DNA of 64,000 nt, taken from Catenulispora acidiphila DSM 44928. GTDB lineage: Bacteria > Actinomycetota > Actinomycetes > Streptomycetales > Catenulisporaceae. The position numbers and the translations under genes were made by a program. Of the stretch, positions 39,867 to 45,820 are shown in pieces (position 1 is the stretch's first letter; each line of letters starts with the position of its first letter). The notes below the pieces were generated by a model, which saw only the letters and a list, made by a program, of their open reading frames with translations, did not search any database and was not told the origin of the DNA. The stretch spans positions 2,480,001 to 2,544,000 of the forward strand of contig NC_013131.1 in assembly GCF_000024025.1 (NCBI RefSeq), in the 5' to 3' direction.

Positions 39867-40790
39867 TCACGGCCCGAAGTCGTTCGCGTCGCTCGCGGTC
39901 GCGACGAAGCTGTGGATGTCCGGCGCCGACAGGCGGGTGAAGACGCCCGGCGTGCCAGGGACGGCGCAGCCGTTGCCCCAGCTCGTGACGCCGATCAGCT
40001 CCCATGTCCCGCCGGGCAGCGCGGCGAGCAGCGGGCCGCCGCTGTCACCGGTGCAGGCGTCGTGGTGGCCGTCACCGCCGGCGCACAGCATCTCCTGCGG
40101 GTAGAGCGCGGGGTTGCGGATGCCGTCGAAGACGCTCCGGCACGGGCCGTCACCGACCAGCGGGAGGTCCACCTGGCGGAGCTCGTCCGGGTACACGCCA
40201 CCGCCAACATCCGCCGGACCCTGCGCCTGGGTGCTGCCCCAGCCGATGGCGCGGGCCGGAGTGCCGGCGTGCTCGTAGGACTGGTTGCCGGAAGGCGGCA
40301 TGGTCGGCGAGGCGACGTCGGCGATCGGCGTGTCGAGCTGCACCACTGCTGCATCGTCGGACTCGGTAGCCGAGTCCCAGGTCGGGTCCATGTGGATCGC
40401 CGCGGGCACCCGGATCGCGCCATCGCTAGCGCTCAGCACCGTGCGGCCGACGATGATCCGCTCCTTGGCCTCGCCGGTACTCGCGGTCTGACCGACCGAC
40501 CACTGATCCACGCAGTGTGCCGCCGTCAGCACCTCATCCGGCGCGATGAGCGTCCCGCCACAGATGGTGAGGTAGCCGTTGCCGGCCCACTGCTGCAACG
40601 CAGCCATGAACGGATACGCACCATCCGGCGCCGCCGCGCCTCCAACGATCCGCGGAATCGGCCGCAACACCGCCGCCGCGGGCTTCGCCGGCGCCCCCAA
40701 AGCCGTCGCTGCGGCCACCCCGGCCACGGTCAGCACCCCCGCGACGCCCCACGCCGCCATCCGTGCGACCCGCCGCCTCAGCCGCGTCAT
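39867..40790 (-). CDS. Secreted trypsin-like serine protease (S1)
   Basis: A 307-residue chymotrypsin-fold protease. An Arg-rich start and hydrophobic segment (about 10-40) form a signal peptide. The mature N-terminus would be IVGG (48-51) after R47, implying trypsin-like zymogen activation. The catalytic triad is His92 (TAAHC), Asp146 (SDDAAV) and Ser250 (GDSGGPLL). DACTGDSGGP has Asp six residues before Ser, giving Arg/Lys specificity. Cysteines are placed for the usual disulphides. It is probably a development- or nutrient-linked exoprotease. ATG 40790; no strong ribosome binding site visible. Confidence 0.94.
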   Translation of the reverse strand: MTRLRRRVARMAAWGVAGVLTVAGVAAATALGAPAKPAAAVLRPIPRIVGGAAAPDGAYPFMAALQQWAGNGYLTICGGTLIAPDEVLTAAHCVDQWSVGQTASTGEAKERIIVGRTVLSASDGAIRVPAAIHMDPTWDSATESDDAAVVQLDTPIADVASPTMPPSGNQSYEHAGTPARAIGWGSTQAQGPADVGGGVYPDELRQVDLPLVGDGPCRSVFDGIRNPALYPQEMLCAGGDGHHDACTGDSGGPLLAALPGGTWELIGVTSWGNGCAVPGTPGVFTRLSAPDIHSFVATASDANDFGP

Positions 40791-41110: not shown

Positions 41111-41183
41111 GCGGATGTGGCTCAGTTGGTAGAGCATCACCTTGCCAAGGTGAGGGTCGCGAGTTCGAGTCTCGTCATCCGCT
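41111..41183 (+). tRNA. tRNA-Gly (anticodon GCC)
   Basis: Acceptor GCGGATG/CATCCGC with discriminator T, anticodon loop TTGCCAA, T loop TTCGAGT. First gene of a three-tRNA cluster. Confidence 0.97.
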
Positions 41184-41238
41184 CGGTTGGAAGGCTGGTC
41201 GGGTACCGTGTTCCACGCCTGATCGAGCCCACTCCCAC

Positions 41239-41309
41239 GGTGGTGTGGCCGAGAGGCGAGGCAACGGCCTGCAAAGCCGTCTACACGGGTTCAAATCCCG
41301 TCACCACCT
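41239..41309 (+). tRNA. tRNA-Cys (anticodon GCA)
   Basis: Acceptor GGTGGTG/CACCACC with discriminator T, anticodon stem ACGGC/GCCGT with loop CTGCAAA, T loop TTCAAAT. Second gene of the cluster. Confidence 0.97.
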
Positions 41310-41353
41310 CGCACGACGGCAAGGCAGTACAGCAAAACAAAGAAACGAAGCAA

Positions 41354-41425
41354 GGGCGATTAGCTCAGCGGGAGAGCGCTTCCCTGACACGGAAGAGGTC
41401 ACTGGTTCAATCCCAGTATCGCCCA
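41354..41425 (+). tRNA. tRNA-Val (anticodon GAC)
   Basis: Acceptor GGGCGAT/ATCGCCC, discriminator A, anticodon stem CTTCC/GGAAG with loop CTGACAC. It shares its acceptor and D arm with the tRNA-Val(CAC) 4.5 kb upstream. Last gene of the cluster and the boundary of the accessory cassette. Confidence 0.97.
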
Positions 41426-41438
41426 CATAAGACGGTAT

Positions 41439-41470
41439 GAACGCCGCACTCCATCAGGAGTGCGGCGTTC
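41439..41470. terminator. Strong hairpin after the tRNA cluster
   Basis: A perfect 14-bp stem, GAACGCCGCACTCC/GGAGTGCGGCGTTC, with loop ATCA, 14 bases after tRNA-Val. It also faces the 3' end of the accessory cassette on the other strand. Confidence 0.88.
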
Positions 41471-41542
41471 TGCGTTGGCGCGGGCAGATCAGTGACGCCT
41501 GGGCGATGAACGCGCTTGGTTGATTCGGCTGGAGAGCTTGGA

Positions 41543-42028
41543 CTAGCTCTTTCGGCGGCGGAAGCGATGTGGTTTCTCTGCTGATGGAGTCGGAGGCGTC
41601 TCTTGGGCGCGGCGCTCTTGTGACCTTGAGGTCGTGGGCTCTGCCTTGTTGAGGGTGTGTCGGCTGGCGGCTTCATCGCGTTCGGGTGTCTGGCCGTAGC
41701 GTCTGCGGTAGGCCTTGCCGAGGTCTTCGGCGGCTTCGAGGGCTAGGTCTATGGGGAGGTTTTGCGATAGTTCGCTGAGTGCTGCCAGGTAGGCGGTGTT
41801 GTCGGGTTGTGGGTGCTGCGCTTCTTTTTGGTCGGTGGTTGGCGGGGGGCGCCTTTTGGCCTTTTCGGGTTCGCGGGGCGGGGGAGGCAAGACTGTTCCG
41901 GTGAGTGGTTGGGTGGCCTTGGGTTGCTGGGCGTTGATGTGCCTTGGTTTGGGGTCGGGGTTGGTCTTGGGGTGTTCGTTGTTTGATTGGCTTTTGGTCT
42001 TCCTCAGAAGCCATGGCGATCGAGCCAT
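41543..42028 (-). CDS. Unrecognised accessory protein C of a three-gene cassette (161 aa)
   Basis: Last gene of the cassette beside the tRNA cluster. Its ATG overlaps the end of the 75-aa gene by 25 bases, so translation is probably coupled. The product is very hydrophilic: residues 10-80 are Pro/Lys/Gln-rich and probably disordered, a helical segment DNTAYLAALSELSQNLP and IDLALEAAEDLGKAYRRRYG follows, and the basic C-terminus ends RFRRRKS. No signal, TM segment or known domain is seen. The composition suggests a nucleic-acid-binding or scaffold role, but that is inference. The local DNA is lower in GC and richer in T than neighbours, hinting at horizontal origin. Confidence 0.6.
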   Translation of the reverse strand: MARSPWLLRKTKSQSNNEHPKTNPDPKPRHINAQQPKATQPLTGTVLPPPPREPEKAKRRPPPTTDQKEAQHPQPDNTAYLAALSELSQNLPIDLALEAAEDLGKAYRRRYGQTPERDEAASRHTLNKAEPTTSRSQERRAQETPPTPSAEKPHRFRRRKS

Positions 42029-42231
42029 CTGTTGATCCCATCGATCATGTCGTCGGCCAGGTTGCTCCAGAGAGCGATTTGGTCTCGTTTGATCTGGCGG
42101 TACTTGTATTTTGCGAGTATTGGCAGGATGTCGCGGACCCAGATGCGGCTGTATTCGAGCCAGTAGGTGGGGGAGTGGGAGAAGTTCGGGGTCGGAGGGC
42201 CGGCGCGGGGGCGGCGTTCCAGGGAGGTCAC
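42004..42231 (-). CDS. Unrecognised accessory protein B of a three-gene cassette (75 aa)
   Basis: A short frame whose start codon overlaps the stop of the 124-aa gene in the arrangement ATGA, and whose end overlaps the next gene by 25 bases. The product has aromatic-rich helices, YWLEYSRIWVRDILPILAKYKYRQ and IALWSNLADDMIDGINRWLDRHGF, which look like a genuine amphipathic helical protein. No family was recognised. The tight overlaps on both sides argue that it is a real gene in an operon. Confidence 0.62.
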   Translation of the reverse strand: MTSLERRPRAGPPTPNFSHSPTYWLEYSRIWVRDILPILAKYKYRQIKRDQIALWSNLADDMIDGINRWLDRHGF

Positions 42232-42602
42232 AGGCGGTCTCGGCGGCGCTGGCGGGCGCGGTCGAGGTCGGCGAGGGCGTCTTGGCGGATGTCGTCGTCC
42301 AGGCTCATGTTGTACACGGCGCGACGTGCGTCGTTGTGGGATTGGCTGATGGCCAGGACCGGGATGATGTCCTCGCGGATGACGCGGCGGCGCTCGTTGA
42401 GGAACTCGATCTGCAGGCTCGTCTCCGTCACGACCTTGACCACGGCGTACCGGGCCGATGCGAGGGCATAGGCGGTGTTCTCTGCCGCAGTCGCGATGGC
42501 CTTGACCACGGCCATTCTGGTCAGGCTGCCGGGCAGAACGTTCGGCAGGGTCGCGACCACTTCGTTGCGGTCGCCGTTGAAGCGGACGATCTCTTTACTC
42601 AT
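42228..42602 (-). CDS. Unrecognised accessory protein A of a three-gene cassette (124 aa)
   Basis: First gene of the cassette. The product begins MSKEIVRFNGDRNEVVATLPNV and is then mostly helical: TRMAVVKAIATAAENTAYALAS, ARYAVVKVVTETSLQIEFLNERR and DDDIRQDALADLDRARQRRRDRL, with a charged coiled-coil-like end. No TM helix, signal or catalytic motif. The ATG at 42602 is 20 bases from a perfect 14-bp palindrome that may be an operator. Unknown function. Confidence 0.68.
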   Translation of the reverse strand: MSKEIVRFNGDRNEVVATLPNVLPGSLTRMAVVKAIATAAENTAYALASARYAVVKVVTETSLQIEFLNERRRVIREDIIPVLAISQSHNDARRAVYNMSLDDDIRQDALADLDRARQRRRDRL

Positions 42603-42621
42603 GGGAATCCATTCGAGGAGG

Positions 42622-42635
42622 GACCGATATCGGTC
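42622..42635. promoter_or_regulatory. Perfect 14-bp palindrome before the accessory cassette
   Basis: GACCGATATCGGTC lies 20 bases upstream of the 124-aa gene. Candidate operator. Confidence 0.5.
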
Positions 42636-42714
42636 GACGAGGACTCGTCATGGCTGGTGGCGATTGGTGAGCCGTGTGGGATGAAAACGGCCCGTGATAC
42701 CAATGCGTTCCCGT

Positions 42715-42746
42715 TGAGTGAAGATCTTTAAATCGTCGTTCACTCA
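42715..42746. promoter_or_regulatory. Inverted repeat TGAGTGAA / TTCACTCA
   Basis: Perfect 8-bp arms flank a 16-base AT-rich core containing TCTTTAAAT. It is suited to a promoter-overlapping operator, in the only strongly AT-rich patch nearby. Confidence 0.5.
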
Positions 42747-43090
42747 TTTGTCTATGGTGTTTCCAGGGTGGTGAAAGGGCGTGGCGCGGCCGATCGCGAC
42801 AAGCTGCGGGGAATGTGTTTCGGCAGTTGATTAATACTGGGCTGGTTTGACGTTGCGGGTGCGGTGGATCGCGCTGAAGGATCGAGATTGATTAGCTGGG
42901 TTTATGAACACTTGCCGGATTCTCCTGCCAGAGCCCTGAATTTGGGGCGGGCATGGTAGTTCGCCCGTTTTGTGGTTCGCGGGTGGCGTGAAAAGGGCGT
43001 GCGGGTGTCGGGGGTGGTCGGTAATCTCTGGGGCGGCGGTGCGGTGGTTACCGCGTGGGTGGTGGCGGTGGGTGGGGACTGGGGTGGGTT

Positions 43091-44428
43091 GTGCGGGTCA
43101 GGGTGCTGCGGGTGCTGGATGTTGGGGGGTTGCCGCGGGTTTTTTGGTGGGTGTGGGTTAGTACGTTGGTGGCGCGGACGGGGGCTTTTGTTGCGCCGTT
43201 TCTTTCCTACTACCTGACGCGGTCGCTGGGGCATTCGGCGGCTTTTGCGGGGTTCGTTGCCGCGTTGAATGCGGGCGGGGCGGCTGTTTCGGCGGTGGTG
43301 GGGGGTGTGCTGGCTGATCGGGTGGGGCGGCGGGGGACGTTGCTGGGGGCGCTGGTGGCGTCGGCGGTGACGTTGGTGGCGCTTGGGTCGGTGCACTCGG
43401 TGGGGTTGATTGCGGTGTTGGCGTTCCTTGCGGGGTTGGCCAACAATGCGACGCGGCCGGCGACGGGGGCGATCATCGCGGACATCGTGCCGTCGGGGGA
43501 TCGGGGGCGGGCGTATGCGCTGAACTACTGGGCGATCAACTTGGGGTTCGCGGTCGCGATGCTGTCTGCGGGGGCGGTGGCGTCGCACGGGTATTCGCTG
43601 CTGTTCATGGGTGATGCGATCGCGAATGTGGGGTGCGCGGTCGTCGTCTTCTTCACGGTGCCGGAGACGCGGCCGACTTCTGTTGGTGTCGCCGGCGCAG
43701 GGCATGCCGGTCAGCCCGAGCGTGCGGGCACTCTCGTGGATGTGCTGCGCGACCGGATCTTCTTGGGGTTCCTGGGGGCGGTGCTGGTCGGGGCGGTCAT
43801 CTATTCGCAGGCTCAGACCGTGCAGCCGATCATGATGGGTCAGGACGGTCTTGGGCCTGGTGCATATGGCGCGGTCGCGGCGCTCAATGGGATCCTCATC
43901 GGTGTTCTGCAGTTGCCGATGACGTCGTGGATGCGGCGATACACCCATGGGTCGGTGCTGGCGGCCTCGTCGTTTCTGATGGGCGCCGGGTTCGCTGTGC
44001 CTTTGCTGATCTCGGCGGTGGGGCACCCGATGGGGGTCTATGCCGGCTCGGTGGTGGTGTGGACGATCGCGGAGATCGGGAGCACGCCGCCGCAGATGGC
44101 GCTGGGTGCGGATCTGGCGCCGGCGCATCTGCGCGGGAGGTATCAGGGGATGTCGACGCTGGCGTGGAGTGTGGCCGGCATCGTCGGTCCGTTGGTGGGC
44201 GGCTGGGCACTGACGGCGATCGGTGCTTCGGCCGTGTTGTGGGCGAGCCTGCTGCTCGGCGCGGCAGGTGTGCCGGCGTGGGTGATGCTCGACCGCCGAT
44301 CGAGAACACGAGTGGCCACGTTGCGCGCCGCCGAAGCGCACTGGGAACCGGTGTTGTCCGCCATCGCGTCACCCGAAGTGGTGTCGGCCGGTGTGCCGAC
44401 GTCCGAGCCGGAGCCGGAACCGGTGTGA
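43091..44428 (+). CDS. MFS transporter
   Basis: A 445-residue major facilitator with about 12 TM helices. The loop 2-3 motif A is GGVLADRVGRRGTLLGAL, and related features include RPATGAIIADIVPSGDRGRAYALNYWAINLGFAVA, typical of MdtH/YceL-type drug exporters. Substrate not predictable. Codon use is noticeably less C-biased (many GGG and GTG) than in neighbours. The start is uncertain; GTG 43091 leads into VRVRVLRVLDVGGLPRVFWW, a normal pre-TM1 segment, whereas a start at 43055 adds a Gly/Trp run. Confidence 0.88.
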   Translation: MRVRVLRVLDVGGLPRVFWWVWVSTLVARTGAFVAPFLSYYLTRSLGHSAAFAGFVAALNAGGAAVSAVVGGVLADRVGRRGTLLGALVASAVTLVALGSVHSVGLIAVLAFLAGLANNATRPATGAIIADIVPSGDRGRAYALNYWAINLGFAVAMLSAGAVASHGYSLLFMGDAIANVGCAVVVFFTVPETRPTSVGVAGAGHAGQPERAGTLVDVLRDRIFLGFLGAVLVGAVIYSQAQTVQPIMMGQDGLGPGAYGAVAALNGILIGVLQLPMTSWMRRYTHGSVLAASSFLMGAGFAVPLLISAVGHPMGVYAGSVVVWTIAEIGSTPPQMALGADLAPAHLRGRYQGMSTLAWSVAGIVGPLVGGWALTAIGASAVLWASLLLGAAGVPAWVMLDRRSRTRVATLRAAEAHWEPVLSAIASPEVVSAGVPTSEPEPEPV

Positions 44429-44554: not shown

Positions 44555-45820
44555 ATGAGGTCAGAAGGCCGGTCGACAAGTTCCGGAGTCGGGCTGACGC
44601 ACGATGACGGTCGGATGCATGACGACAGTTCGGCTGGCGATGATGGTTCGGCTCGGGATATCGACGGTGGCGTTGAAGGGTTGCCGGTTGGGCTGGCCGA
44701 ACCCGATTCGACCGAGCCTGACTTGGCACCGAAGCCTGCGCAGGCGCGTAACCCCCTGAAGCGCCTTGTTGCTTGGTATCGGCGTCGGCCGAAGTGGTGG
44801 CGTAGGGCGCTGGCTTCGCTGGTGGCCCTGTTTGCTTTGTTGGCGACGCTGGTCGGTACCACCGGCGTCGCGTTGTATGCCGAAGGCGCCGGTACGCCGC
44901 CAGCGGCTGCGCGTAGTACTGGCGACGACGCCTTGTGGCTCGGTCACGCCTGGGTCGGGTGGCAGGCTGGTGCGGCCGGGGCGCCCAAGACCGAGGCCGA
45001 CTTGCAGGCGCTGGTGGCTCAAGTTCGTTCTTCAGGTATCAAGGATCTGTTTGTCCACGACGGGCCCTTCGAGATAGACGGCTCGCTCAACGCGGCCCGT
45101 AGTCCGAAGGCCGAGTGGTTCATCGATGCCGTCCACCGGGAGCTGCCCGGGGTACGGGTCCAGGCGTGGCTCGGGCAGGTTGTCGGCGGTGGTGGGCTGC
45201 ATTTGGACGACGCGGCGACGCGTGGGCGGATCGTCGCCGGTGTCGGTGCCGCACTGGATCGCGGGTTCGACGGTGTTCACTTCGACTTCGAGCCGGTGTC
45301 CGACGGTGACGCTGGCTTCCTGGACCTGGTGAGCGCGACACGCACCGTGACTCAGGCCCACCATGCGTTGCTGTCGGTGTCTGTGCCACAGGTGGAGCCG
45401 TTGTCTGGGTTCCGGATCCCCGGGGACTTCTTGGCTGGGCATCCGAAGTGGTGGTCTCAGGGGTATCTCCGCCAGGTCGCCGTGCACTGCGACCAGGTAG
45501 CGGTCATGGCCTATGACACCTCTCTGCCGACCGCCTGGGCATACCGGGGCTACGTCGCCCGGCAGACCCAGGTGGCGCTGAATGCGGTGCCGTCGAATGT
45601 CGAGCTGCTGATGGGAGTCCCGGCCTTCCACACCCACGATCCAGGCCACTGGGTCCAGGCCGAGACCATGCCGGCTGCTCTGGACGGCGTACGGCTCGGG
45701 CTTGGCGCGCATCCGTCGTCGCGGCCGTTCGGTGTCGCGCTGTACGTCGACTTCGCCGCGACTCCGGCCGACTGGGCGGCCTACCGCACCGACTGGCTCA
45801 GTCCGGACCCGGCGGCGTGA
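44555..45820 (+). CDS. Membrane-anchored GH18-like TIM-barrel protein
   Basis: A 421-residue protein: an acidic cytoplasmic N-terminus (1-80), one TM helix (about 85-110, ALASLVALFALLATLVGTTGVAL) and an extracytoplasmic barrel. The glycoside hydrolase 18 active-site strand reads DGVHFDFEP (239-247): the proton donor Glu246 and Asp244 are present but the first inner Asp of DGxDxDxE is His242. VAVMAYDTS corresponds to the conserved MxYD strand. It could be a chitinase-like hydrolase, a peptidoglycan or glycan hydrolase, or a lectin-like derivative. The start at ATG 44555 is tentative; ATG 44618 is an alternative. The 3' end overlaps the convergent gene by 23 bases. Confidence 0.75.
   Translation: MRSEGRSTSSGVGLTHDDGRMHDDSSAGDDGSARDIDGGVEGLPVGLAEPDSTEPDLAPKPAQARNPLKRLVAWYRRRPKWWRRALASLVALFALLATLVGTTGVALYAEGAGTPPAAARSTGDDALWLGHAWVGWQAGAAGAPKTEADLQALVAQVRSSGIKDLFVHDGPFEIDGSLNAARSPKAEWFIDAVHRELPGVRVQAWLGQVVGGGGLHLDDAATRGRIVAGVGAALDRGFDGVHFDFEPVSDGDAGFLDLVSATRTVTQAHHALLSVSVPQVEPLSGFRIPGDFLAGHPKWWSQGYLRQVAVHCDQVAVMAYDTSLPTAWAYRGYVARQTQVALNAVPSNVELLMGVPAFHTHDPGHWVQAETMPAALDGVRLGLGAHPSSRPFGVALYVDFAATPADWAAYRTDWLSPDPAA

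What the first reader, a model, noticed from the sequence alone, without database searches (positions are those of the whole stretch)
41543..42602. Undescribed three-gene coupled cassette next to a tRNA-Val
Three unrecognised small genes overlap (ATGA, then 25 bases), which implies translational coupling and fixed stoichiometry. They begin 118 bases past a tRNA-Val terminus, lie in DNA of lower GC than neighbours, and are preceded by two symmetric elements. This is the architecture of a small accessory or defence-like module or an integrative element remnant. Protein A looks coiled-coil, B is aromatic-helical and C is a disordered basic protein.
Basis: partly seen in the sequence, partly recalled or inferred. 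Interest (0 to 1): 0.7.

Follow-up and report, generated by a model that had tools for sequence, protein, structure and literature searches.

The report
Species-specific small operon beside tRNA genes
One soil actinomycete carries a small run of overlapping genes with no detected relatives, inserted in a spot between a transfer-RNA gene and a transporter gene where related species have nothing or something else; it is a genuine extra piece of DNA, but nothing shows that it is a defence system.

Summary
The genes are there, on the minus strand: A 42228-42602, B 42004-42231, C 41543-42028. A/B overlap by GTGA and B/C by 25 bases. They run towards the tRNA, so the end of C, not the start of the operon, lies 117 bases from tRNA-Val. 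Genome length equals that of Catenulispora acidiphila (10,467,782 bp). Codon signal: strong for A, good for B, weak for C. The segment is an extra ~1.5 kb: of 8 congeners where the place can be read, four have ~190-222 bases there, one 411, and three hold other DNA (1.0, 1.4, 2.6 kb). It has the lowest GC of any 1.5 kb in the window. A and B have no relative in the other 13 family genomes, and none convincing in wider searches. Not supported: defence (no PADLOC match), a coiled coil in A, an integrase link for B (61 of 3000 shuffles score as high), or a tRNA-site element remnant (no integrase, no tRNA-Val fragment, although the same search finds such fragments in sister genera). Two abutting 14-bp palindromes 20-47 bases before A may be an operator. 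Best reading: a gained, self-contained operon of ORFan genes, probably phage- or mobile-element-derived cargo, function untested.

The parts
42228..42602 (-). gene A, 124 aa, predicted all-helical, pI 9.7, no detected relative
   Evidence: coding signal; model; pI; no convincing relative
42004..42231 (-). gene B, 75 aa, GTG start overlapping the stop of A (GTGA); two predicted helices, 10 aromatic residues
   Evidence: no convincing relative; integrase SAM-domain lead rejected
41543..42028 (-). ORF C, 161 aa, basic (pI 10.3), 24 prolines, probably disordered; weakest coding signal; overlaps B by 25 bases
   Evidence: no relative in plasmids or viral contigs; in its own genome only weak matches, best E 0.057
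42622..42649 (.). two abutting 14-bp palindromes 20-47 bases upstream of A, candidate operator
   Evidence: first palindrome occurs exactly only here in the genome
41439..41470 (.). perfect 14-bp stem-loop between tRNA-Val and C; I infer a terminator for both converging units
   Evidence: I2; the terminator scan did not report it, as no T run follows; congeners also have a hairpin-like sequence at this place, of other sequence (by eye)
41471..42984 (.). extra segment (approximate ends) absent from congeners
   Evidence: homology to congeners stops at about the tRNA-Val end and resumes at or after 42985
41111..41426 (+). tRNA-Gly, tRNA-Cys, tRNA-Val cluster, intact, left flank conserved in the genus
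43091..44428 (+). MFS transporter gene, right flank, conserved in the genus (start codon chosen by comparison with congeners)

Best explanation
A lineage-specific accessory operon of ORFan genes (A-B, probably also C) sits in a variable pocket between tRNA-Val and an MFS transporter gene. Shown: gene layout, coding signal of A and B, absence from the same place in congeners, absence of detected relatives. Inferred: one transcript starts upstream of A and is controlled by a dimeric DNA-binding protein at the twin palindromes; A and B, coupled through the GTGA overlap, make two small helical partners; C is a basic, mostly disordered companion; the transcript ends at the hairpin shared with the tRNA cluster. 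The most likely origin is cargo from a phage or other mobile element, gained by ordinary recombination rather than by site-specific integration at the tRNA. The most likely role is that of a small regulatory or host-interaction module. Its biochemical action is not known.
For: Eight of nine congeners can be read at this place: distance from tRNA-Val to the MFS start about 190, 206, 210, 222, 411, 1032, 1434 and 2583 bases; own 1666; own insert DNA in none of them. Lowest GC of 1250 1.5-kb windows. The insert DNA has no substantial copy in the 14 family genomes: only scattered matches of at most about 60 bases. A and B show host-like codon-position GC. Relatives of A: 0 of 13 other family genomes; 2 of 393 other class genomes (E <= 0.01) and 4 of 390 other order genomes (E <= 0.05), no more than chance gives, as E-values are per genome. 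B: 0 of 13, 5 of 393 at E <= 0.01, chance level. Tandem palindromes just upstream.
Against: No phage-like or mobile gene is identified in the insert, so a mobile origin is inferred only from absence elsewhere, low GC and lack of relatives. No strong Shine-Dalgarno sequence precedes A, B or C by eye (upstream sequences; at most partial matches), and no sigma-70-type promoter was found, so expression is uncertain. No protein with a recognised DNA-binding domain is in the cassette. GC3 of A is host-like (0.88), so A is either not recent or came from a similar genome. The coding status of C is weak.
Confidence: 0.6

Rival explanations
1. An undescribed toxin-antitoxin-like or anti-phage module: A and B form a toxic/neutralising pair that represses its own promoter at the twin palindromes, with C as an accessory protein.
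For: Layout typical of such modules: two small overlapping genes, palindromic repeats just upstream, patchy occurrence.
Against: No PADLOC match; no Pfam or NCBIfam family over its cut-off; PHROG matches weak (best E 0.014). No nuclease, acetyltransferase, RHH or HTH family among those matches. Neighbouring defence genes were not looked for systematically.
Confidence: 0.12
2. Remnant of an element that integrated site-specifically at tRNA-Val (AICE-, ICE- or prophage-like).
For: The insert starts close to the tRNA-Val end; tRNA-Val is a known AICE site in Streptomyces (PMC9513070, passages read); displaced tRNA-Val 3' fragments occur in sister genera; B has marginal matches to an integrase domain (E 0.0064) and to an ICE protein family (E 0.078).
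Against: No displaced tRNA-Val fragment anywhere in the own genome at E <= 0.001; matches at the far end no better than in shuffles; no integrase in the insert; the integrase-domain match of B is equalled by 61 of 3000 shuffles on a profile of 13 integrases.
Confidence: 0.08
3. Only A and B are genes and C is a chance open frame; or all three are decaying DNA without function.
For: C scores badly in codon usage; a stop-free frame of the length of C has a 6.5% chance in such DNA; no strong Shine-Dalgarno sites by eye.
Against: A and B beat 2000 of 2000 base shuffles in codon score, and C beats 1997 of 2000; all three frames are intact and overlap head to tail.
Confidence: 0.2

Closest known systems
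Variable gene pockets beside tRNA genes (integration or recombination hot spots)
   Same: Conserved flanks, a tRNA gene on one side, different or no cargo in related genomes
   Different: No integrase, no displaced tRNA fragment; cargo of only 1.5 kb
Actinomycete integrative and conjugative elements (AICEs) and their decayed forms
   Same: Site beside tRNA-Val; unknown small genes as cargo
   Different: No integrase, rep or traB seen, no flanking repeats; AICE regions in PMC9513070 span 11.9-36.2 kb (passages read)
Type II toxin-antitoxin operons (features recalled)
   Same: Small overlapping genes with palindromes upstream, patchy occurrence
   Different: No known toxin or antitoxin family matched by any of the three proteins; three genes

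Membership tests
tRNA-site genomic island (Islander definition) | displaced fragment of the tRNA gene at the far end | tested here: not met
   best 12- to 30-base matches in 41441-43100 no better than in 6 shuffles per length; no tRNA-Val fragment in G000, while 18 shorter tRNA-Val matches appear in G002, G003 and G004; 11 of these were fetched and none holds a tRNA gene
tRNA-site genomic island (Islander definition) | tyrosine integrase gene inside | tested here: not met
   no integrase family over its cut-off in A, B or C; the genome's three PF14659 hits over the cut-off lie at 9.93, 9.94 and 10.33 Mb; B scores 16.4 bits, below the 22.6 cut-off, and fails the shuffle control
AICE | integrase, replication protein and TraB | tested here: not met
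   A, B and C, the only genes I recognise in the insert, have no Pfam or NCBIfam match over the cut-off; TraB and Rep were not sought by separate models
Type II toxin-antitoxin system | recognisable toxin or antitoxin domain | tested here: not met
Type II toxin-antitoxin system | toxicity neutralised by the partner; autoregulation at an upstream operator | not testable with these tools
   palindromes present, function untested
Known anti-phage defence system | match to a PADLOC model | tested here: not met
   0 families for each of the 3 proteins at E up to 5

The most novel reading that the evidence does not exclude
A-B-C is a new three-protein, self-regulated host-defence or toxin-antitoxin-like module, unrelated to any described family and confined to one species or its close kin.
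Probability: 0.08. Interest if true: 0.6.

Novelty: new member of a known kind. Interest (0 to 1): 0.22.

Why it matters
It is a clear case, with the place visible in congeners both nearly empty and filled with other DNA, of a small ORFan operon gained at a tRNA-flanking pocket. Such pockets are where new small systems are often found (general knowledge), but this one offers no functional handle beyond layout and a candidate operator.

Tried and rejected
Integrase domain in B: the Pfam match Phage_int_SAM_3 (E 0.0064; 16.4 bits, E 0.12 in the genome search) was tested with a profile from 13 integrases (11 phage, 2 own; 11 of the 25 phage hits listed, from 56 records, were fetched; the genome's third hit, L064, was left out because its longest open frame is not the integrase). 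B scored 3.4 bits, and 61 of 3000 shuffles of B scored at least that, the best 10.0. Rejected. The weaker NCBIfam match of B to ICE_PFL4669 (E 0.078) was not followed.

tRNA fragment as an att scar: none. Direct repeats bounding the insert: none but short or imperfect ones such as chance gives.

Weak family matches of the other two: A to UBM (E 0.057) and to six PHROGs (best E 0.014; four of the six over parts of residues 30-120 in families of unknown function), C to Filament_head (E 0.39) and one PHROG (E 0.2); treated as noise.

Weak relatives of A and B in other genomes: E-values are per genome and the numbers of hits are about those expected by chance or fewer. These searches sampled 394, 394 and 391 genomes of larger groups, and in each genome scored only the best candidates of a loose first look (up to 11 in the rows shown for A). 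The surroundings of one A hit (L048) and the DNA around another (L084) showed nothing alike; the other hits were not looked at. Arthrobacter phage Circum gp45 (E 0.8, 34 residues; neighbours): chance.

Structure: models of A (pLDDT 77, pTM 0.34, five models at 77 to 48) and B (70, 0.35) are too poor to use; Foldseek against PDB gave no match with E <= 0.001 for either. PDB sequence search: A best E 1.6, B best E 0.99. Rfam over 41300-43200: only the tRNA passes its gathering score. Sigma-70 promoter scan of 41400-43150: none found; one terminator-like site, 42945-42966 on the + strand, against 2.4 expected. Coiled coil in A: no periodicity.

A 96-residue frame in the G011 pocket looked to me, from recall, like a transposase scrap; Pfam gave no match, so it is not claimed.

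C was searched less widely than A and B: own genome, plasmids, viral contigs and the four family libraries only.

Full report
What is there. The genome in which the window lies is one contig of 10,467,782 bases, exactly the length published for the Catenulispora acidiphila type strain (PMC3035231, passages seen), so I take it to be that strain. The three open frames lie on the minus strand: A 42602-42228 (124 aa), B 42231-42004 (75 aa, GTG start), C 42028-41543 (161 aa). A and B share GTGA; B and C share 25 bases. The operon converges on the tRNA cluster Gly-Cys-Val (41111-41426), so it is the stop codon of C that lies 117 bases from the tRNA-Val end. A perfect 14-bp stem-loop (41439-41470) lies between them; that it terminates transcription is my inference, since no T run follows it.

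Are they genes. GC by codon position is .67/.42/.88 for A.55/.46/.79 for B and .64/.54/.67 for C; the protease gene nearby gives .71/.59/.89. With codon frequencies trained on 22 long frames of the window outside this region, A scores +0.51 bits per codon and B +0.11, and 0 of 2000 base shuffles reach either; C scores -0.80, 3 of 2000 shuffles reach it, and its part outside the overlap is still the best of the six frames there (-0.85, next -1.13). The yardstick is imperfect: the MFS gene scores -0.24, tied with one other frame, and the gene at 44555 scores -0.03. A stop-free run of the length of each has a chance of 6%, 14% and 6.5% by composition alone, so frame length is no evidence. No strong Shine-Dalgarno site precedes A, B or C by eye (sequences). 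I treat A and B as genes and C as probable.

An extra piece of DNA. The tRNA cluster and the MFS gene that follows are conserved in the genus. The place can be read in 8 of the 9 other congeners: the distance from the tRNA-Val end to the MFS start is 206 (G012), 210 (G007), 222 (G013), 411 (G011), 1434 (G005) and 2583 bases (G009), 1032 (G006; from the positions), and about 190 (G010, because the script's motif missed it); own is 1666. In G008 the contig ends 80 bases past the tRNA. Homology to own stops at about the tRNA end and resumes at 42985 or later, also in the two longest-but-one pockets G005 and G006. The G009 pocket holds different genes: a ricin-B-like protein (27.0 bits, just above the RicinB_lectin_2 cut-off of 25.6, and just below the Ricin_B_lectin cut-off) and a zinc-type dehydrogenase. 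The place is thus a variable pocket, and own carries about 1.5 kb that the others lack. Its GC is 60.9%; none of 1250 1.5-kb windows (step 50) in the 64 kb is as low.

Relatives. A: none in the other 13 family genomes; 2 of 393 other class genomes at E 0.004-0.006 and 4 of 390 other order genomes at E 0.02-0.05. As these E-values are per genome, that is no more than chance gives. B: 0 of 13, and 5 of 393 at E 0.0025-0.01, also chance level. No relative in GTDB species contigs by close peptide patterns (A, B), in viral contigs (A, B, C), phages (A, B; two records of one phage at E 0.8 for A) or plasmids (A, B, C). No family over its curated cut-off in Pfam or NCBIfam, nothing in PADLOC, and only weak matches (best E 0.014) in PHROGs. 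C was searched less widely.

Structure. AlphaFold2 without homologues predicts helices in A (12-22, 26-85, 89-98, 103-123) and B (21-44, 49-73), at pTM 0.34-0.35; Foldseek finds nothing significant. The long helix of A has no heptad pattern. The second helix of B is amphipathic (p 0.0015 at period 3.67, the lowest of 35 tests: seven periods on five segments). C has 24 prolines in 161 residues and pI 10.3.

Is it an integrative remnant. tRNA-Val is an AICE site in some Streptomyces (PMC9513070, passages read), and islands at tRNA genes leave a displaced fragment of the gene at the far end (PMC4383910, passages read). The tRNA-cluster search found 18 shorter tRNA-Val matches in three sister-genus genomes; the 11 that I fetched (8 in G004, 2 in G003, 1 in G002) contain no tRNA gene by ARAGORN, while one full copy taken as a control does. 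In the own genome the same search found the cluster, a second tRNA-Val gene and three tRNA-Gly-like matches, but no tRNA-Val fragment, and the far end of the insert has no match better than in shuffles. The insert has no integrase. For this reading speak two marginal matches of B, to an integrase N-terminal domain (E 0.0064) and to an ICE protein family (E 0.078); the first fails a shuffle control. I judge this reading not supported.

How it may work. Two 14-bp palindromes abut at 42622-42649, 20-47 bases upstream of A. Each alone is ordinary for this DNA; such a neighbouring pair arose in 4 of 30 Markov windows of 64 kb, so finding one right in front of this operon is suggestive of a double operator, no more. 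The first palindrome occurs exactly nowhere else in the genome, and 3 places match with one mismatch, so a large regulon is unlikely; autoregulation or a dedicated regulator would fit. Beyond that, two small coupled helical proteins and a basic disordered one fit a regulatory, phage-cargo or toxin-antitoxin-like module, and I cannot separate these by sequence.

Literature. Searches for Catenulispora acidiphila with genome terms (53 papers, 10 listed), for Catenulispora with island and integrative terms (1,082 papers, 8 listed) and for tRNA-Val integration (26 papers, 8 listed) listed no paper whose title or shown abstract concerns this locus; three papers were seen in passages and one in outline. 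That is not proof that it is undescribed.

Verdict. It is a real lineage-specific accessory operon of ORFans in a variable pocket; the defence and integrative-remnant readings lack support. Interest is modest.

Noticed in passing
L088-L098 (G004:C1 at 0.71-0.75 and 1.46-1.63 Mb; G003; G002): Displaced 3' fragments of tRNA-Val without a tRNA gene, 8 fetched in one sister-genus genome and 3 in two others: likely scars or ends of islands that integrated at tRNA-Val.
   Followed up: partly
L046:2645-4837 (G009 pocket): The same tRNA-Val/MFS pocket in another congener holds a ricin-B-like protein and a zinc-type dehydrogenase; a frame between them looks, from recall, like an ArsR-type regulator; the frame scanned there (L046:3758-4165, -) gave no Pfam match.
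   Followed up: partly
L043:2175-2822 (G005 pocket) and L009:1864-2894 (G006 pocket): The G005 pocket holds a 215-aa frame with hydrophobic stretches near its start and no Pfam match. The G006 pocket (1032 bases) shares only its two ends with that of G005 and has no obvious gene by eye.
   Followed up: partly
window 39867-40790 (-): Trypsin-family protease gene just before the tRNA cluster.
   Followed up: no
window 44555-45820 (+): Protein with a sub-threshold glycosyl hydrolase 18 match (20.7 bits, cut-off 29.6) and, by eye, a membrane segment in its N-terminal part, downstream of the MFS gene.
   Followed up: no
window 42716-42745: GAGTGAA...TTCACTC inverted repeat (7-base arms, 16 bases apart) further upstream of A, read by eye; possible second regulatory site.
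   Followed up: no
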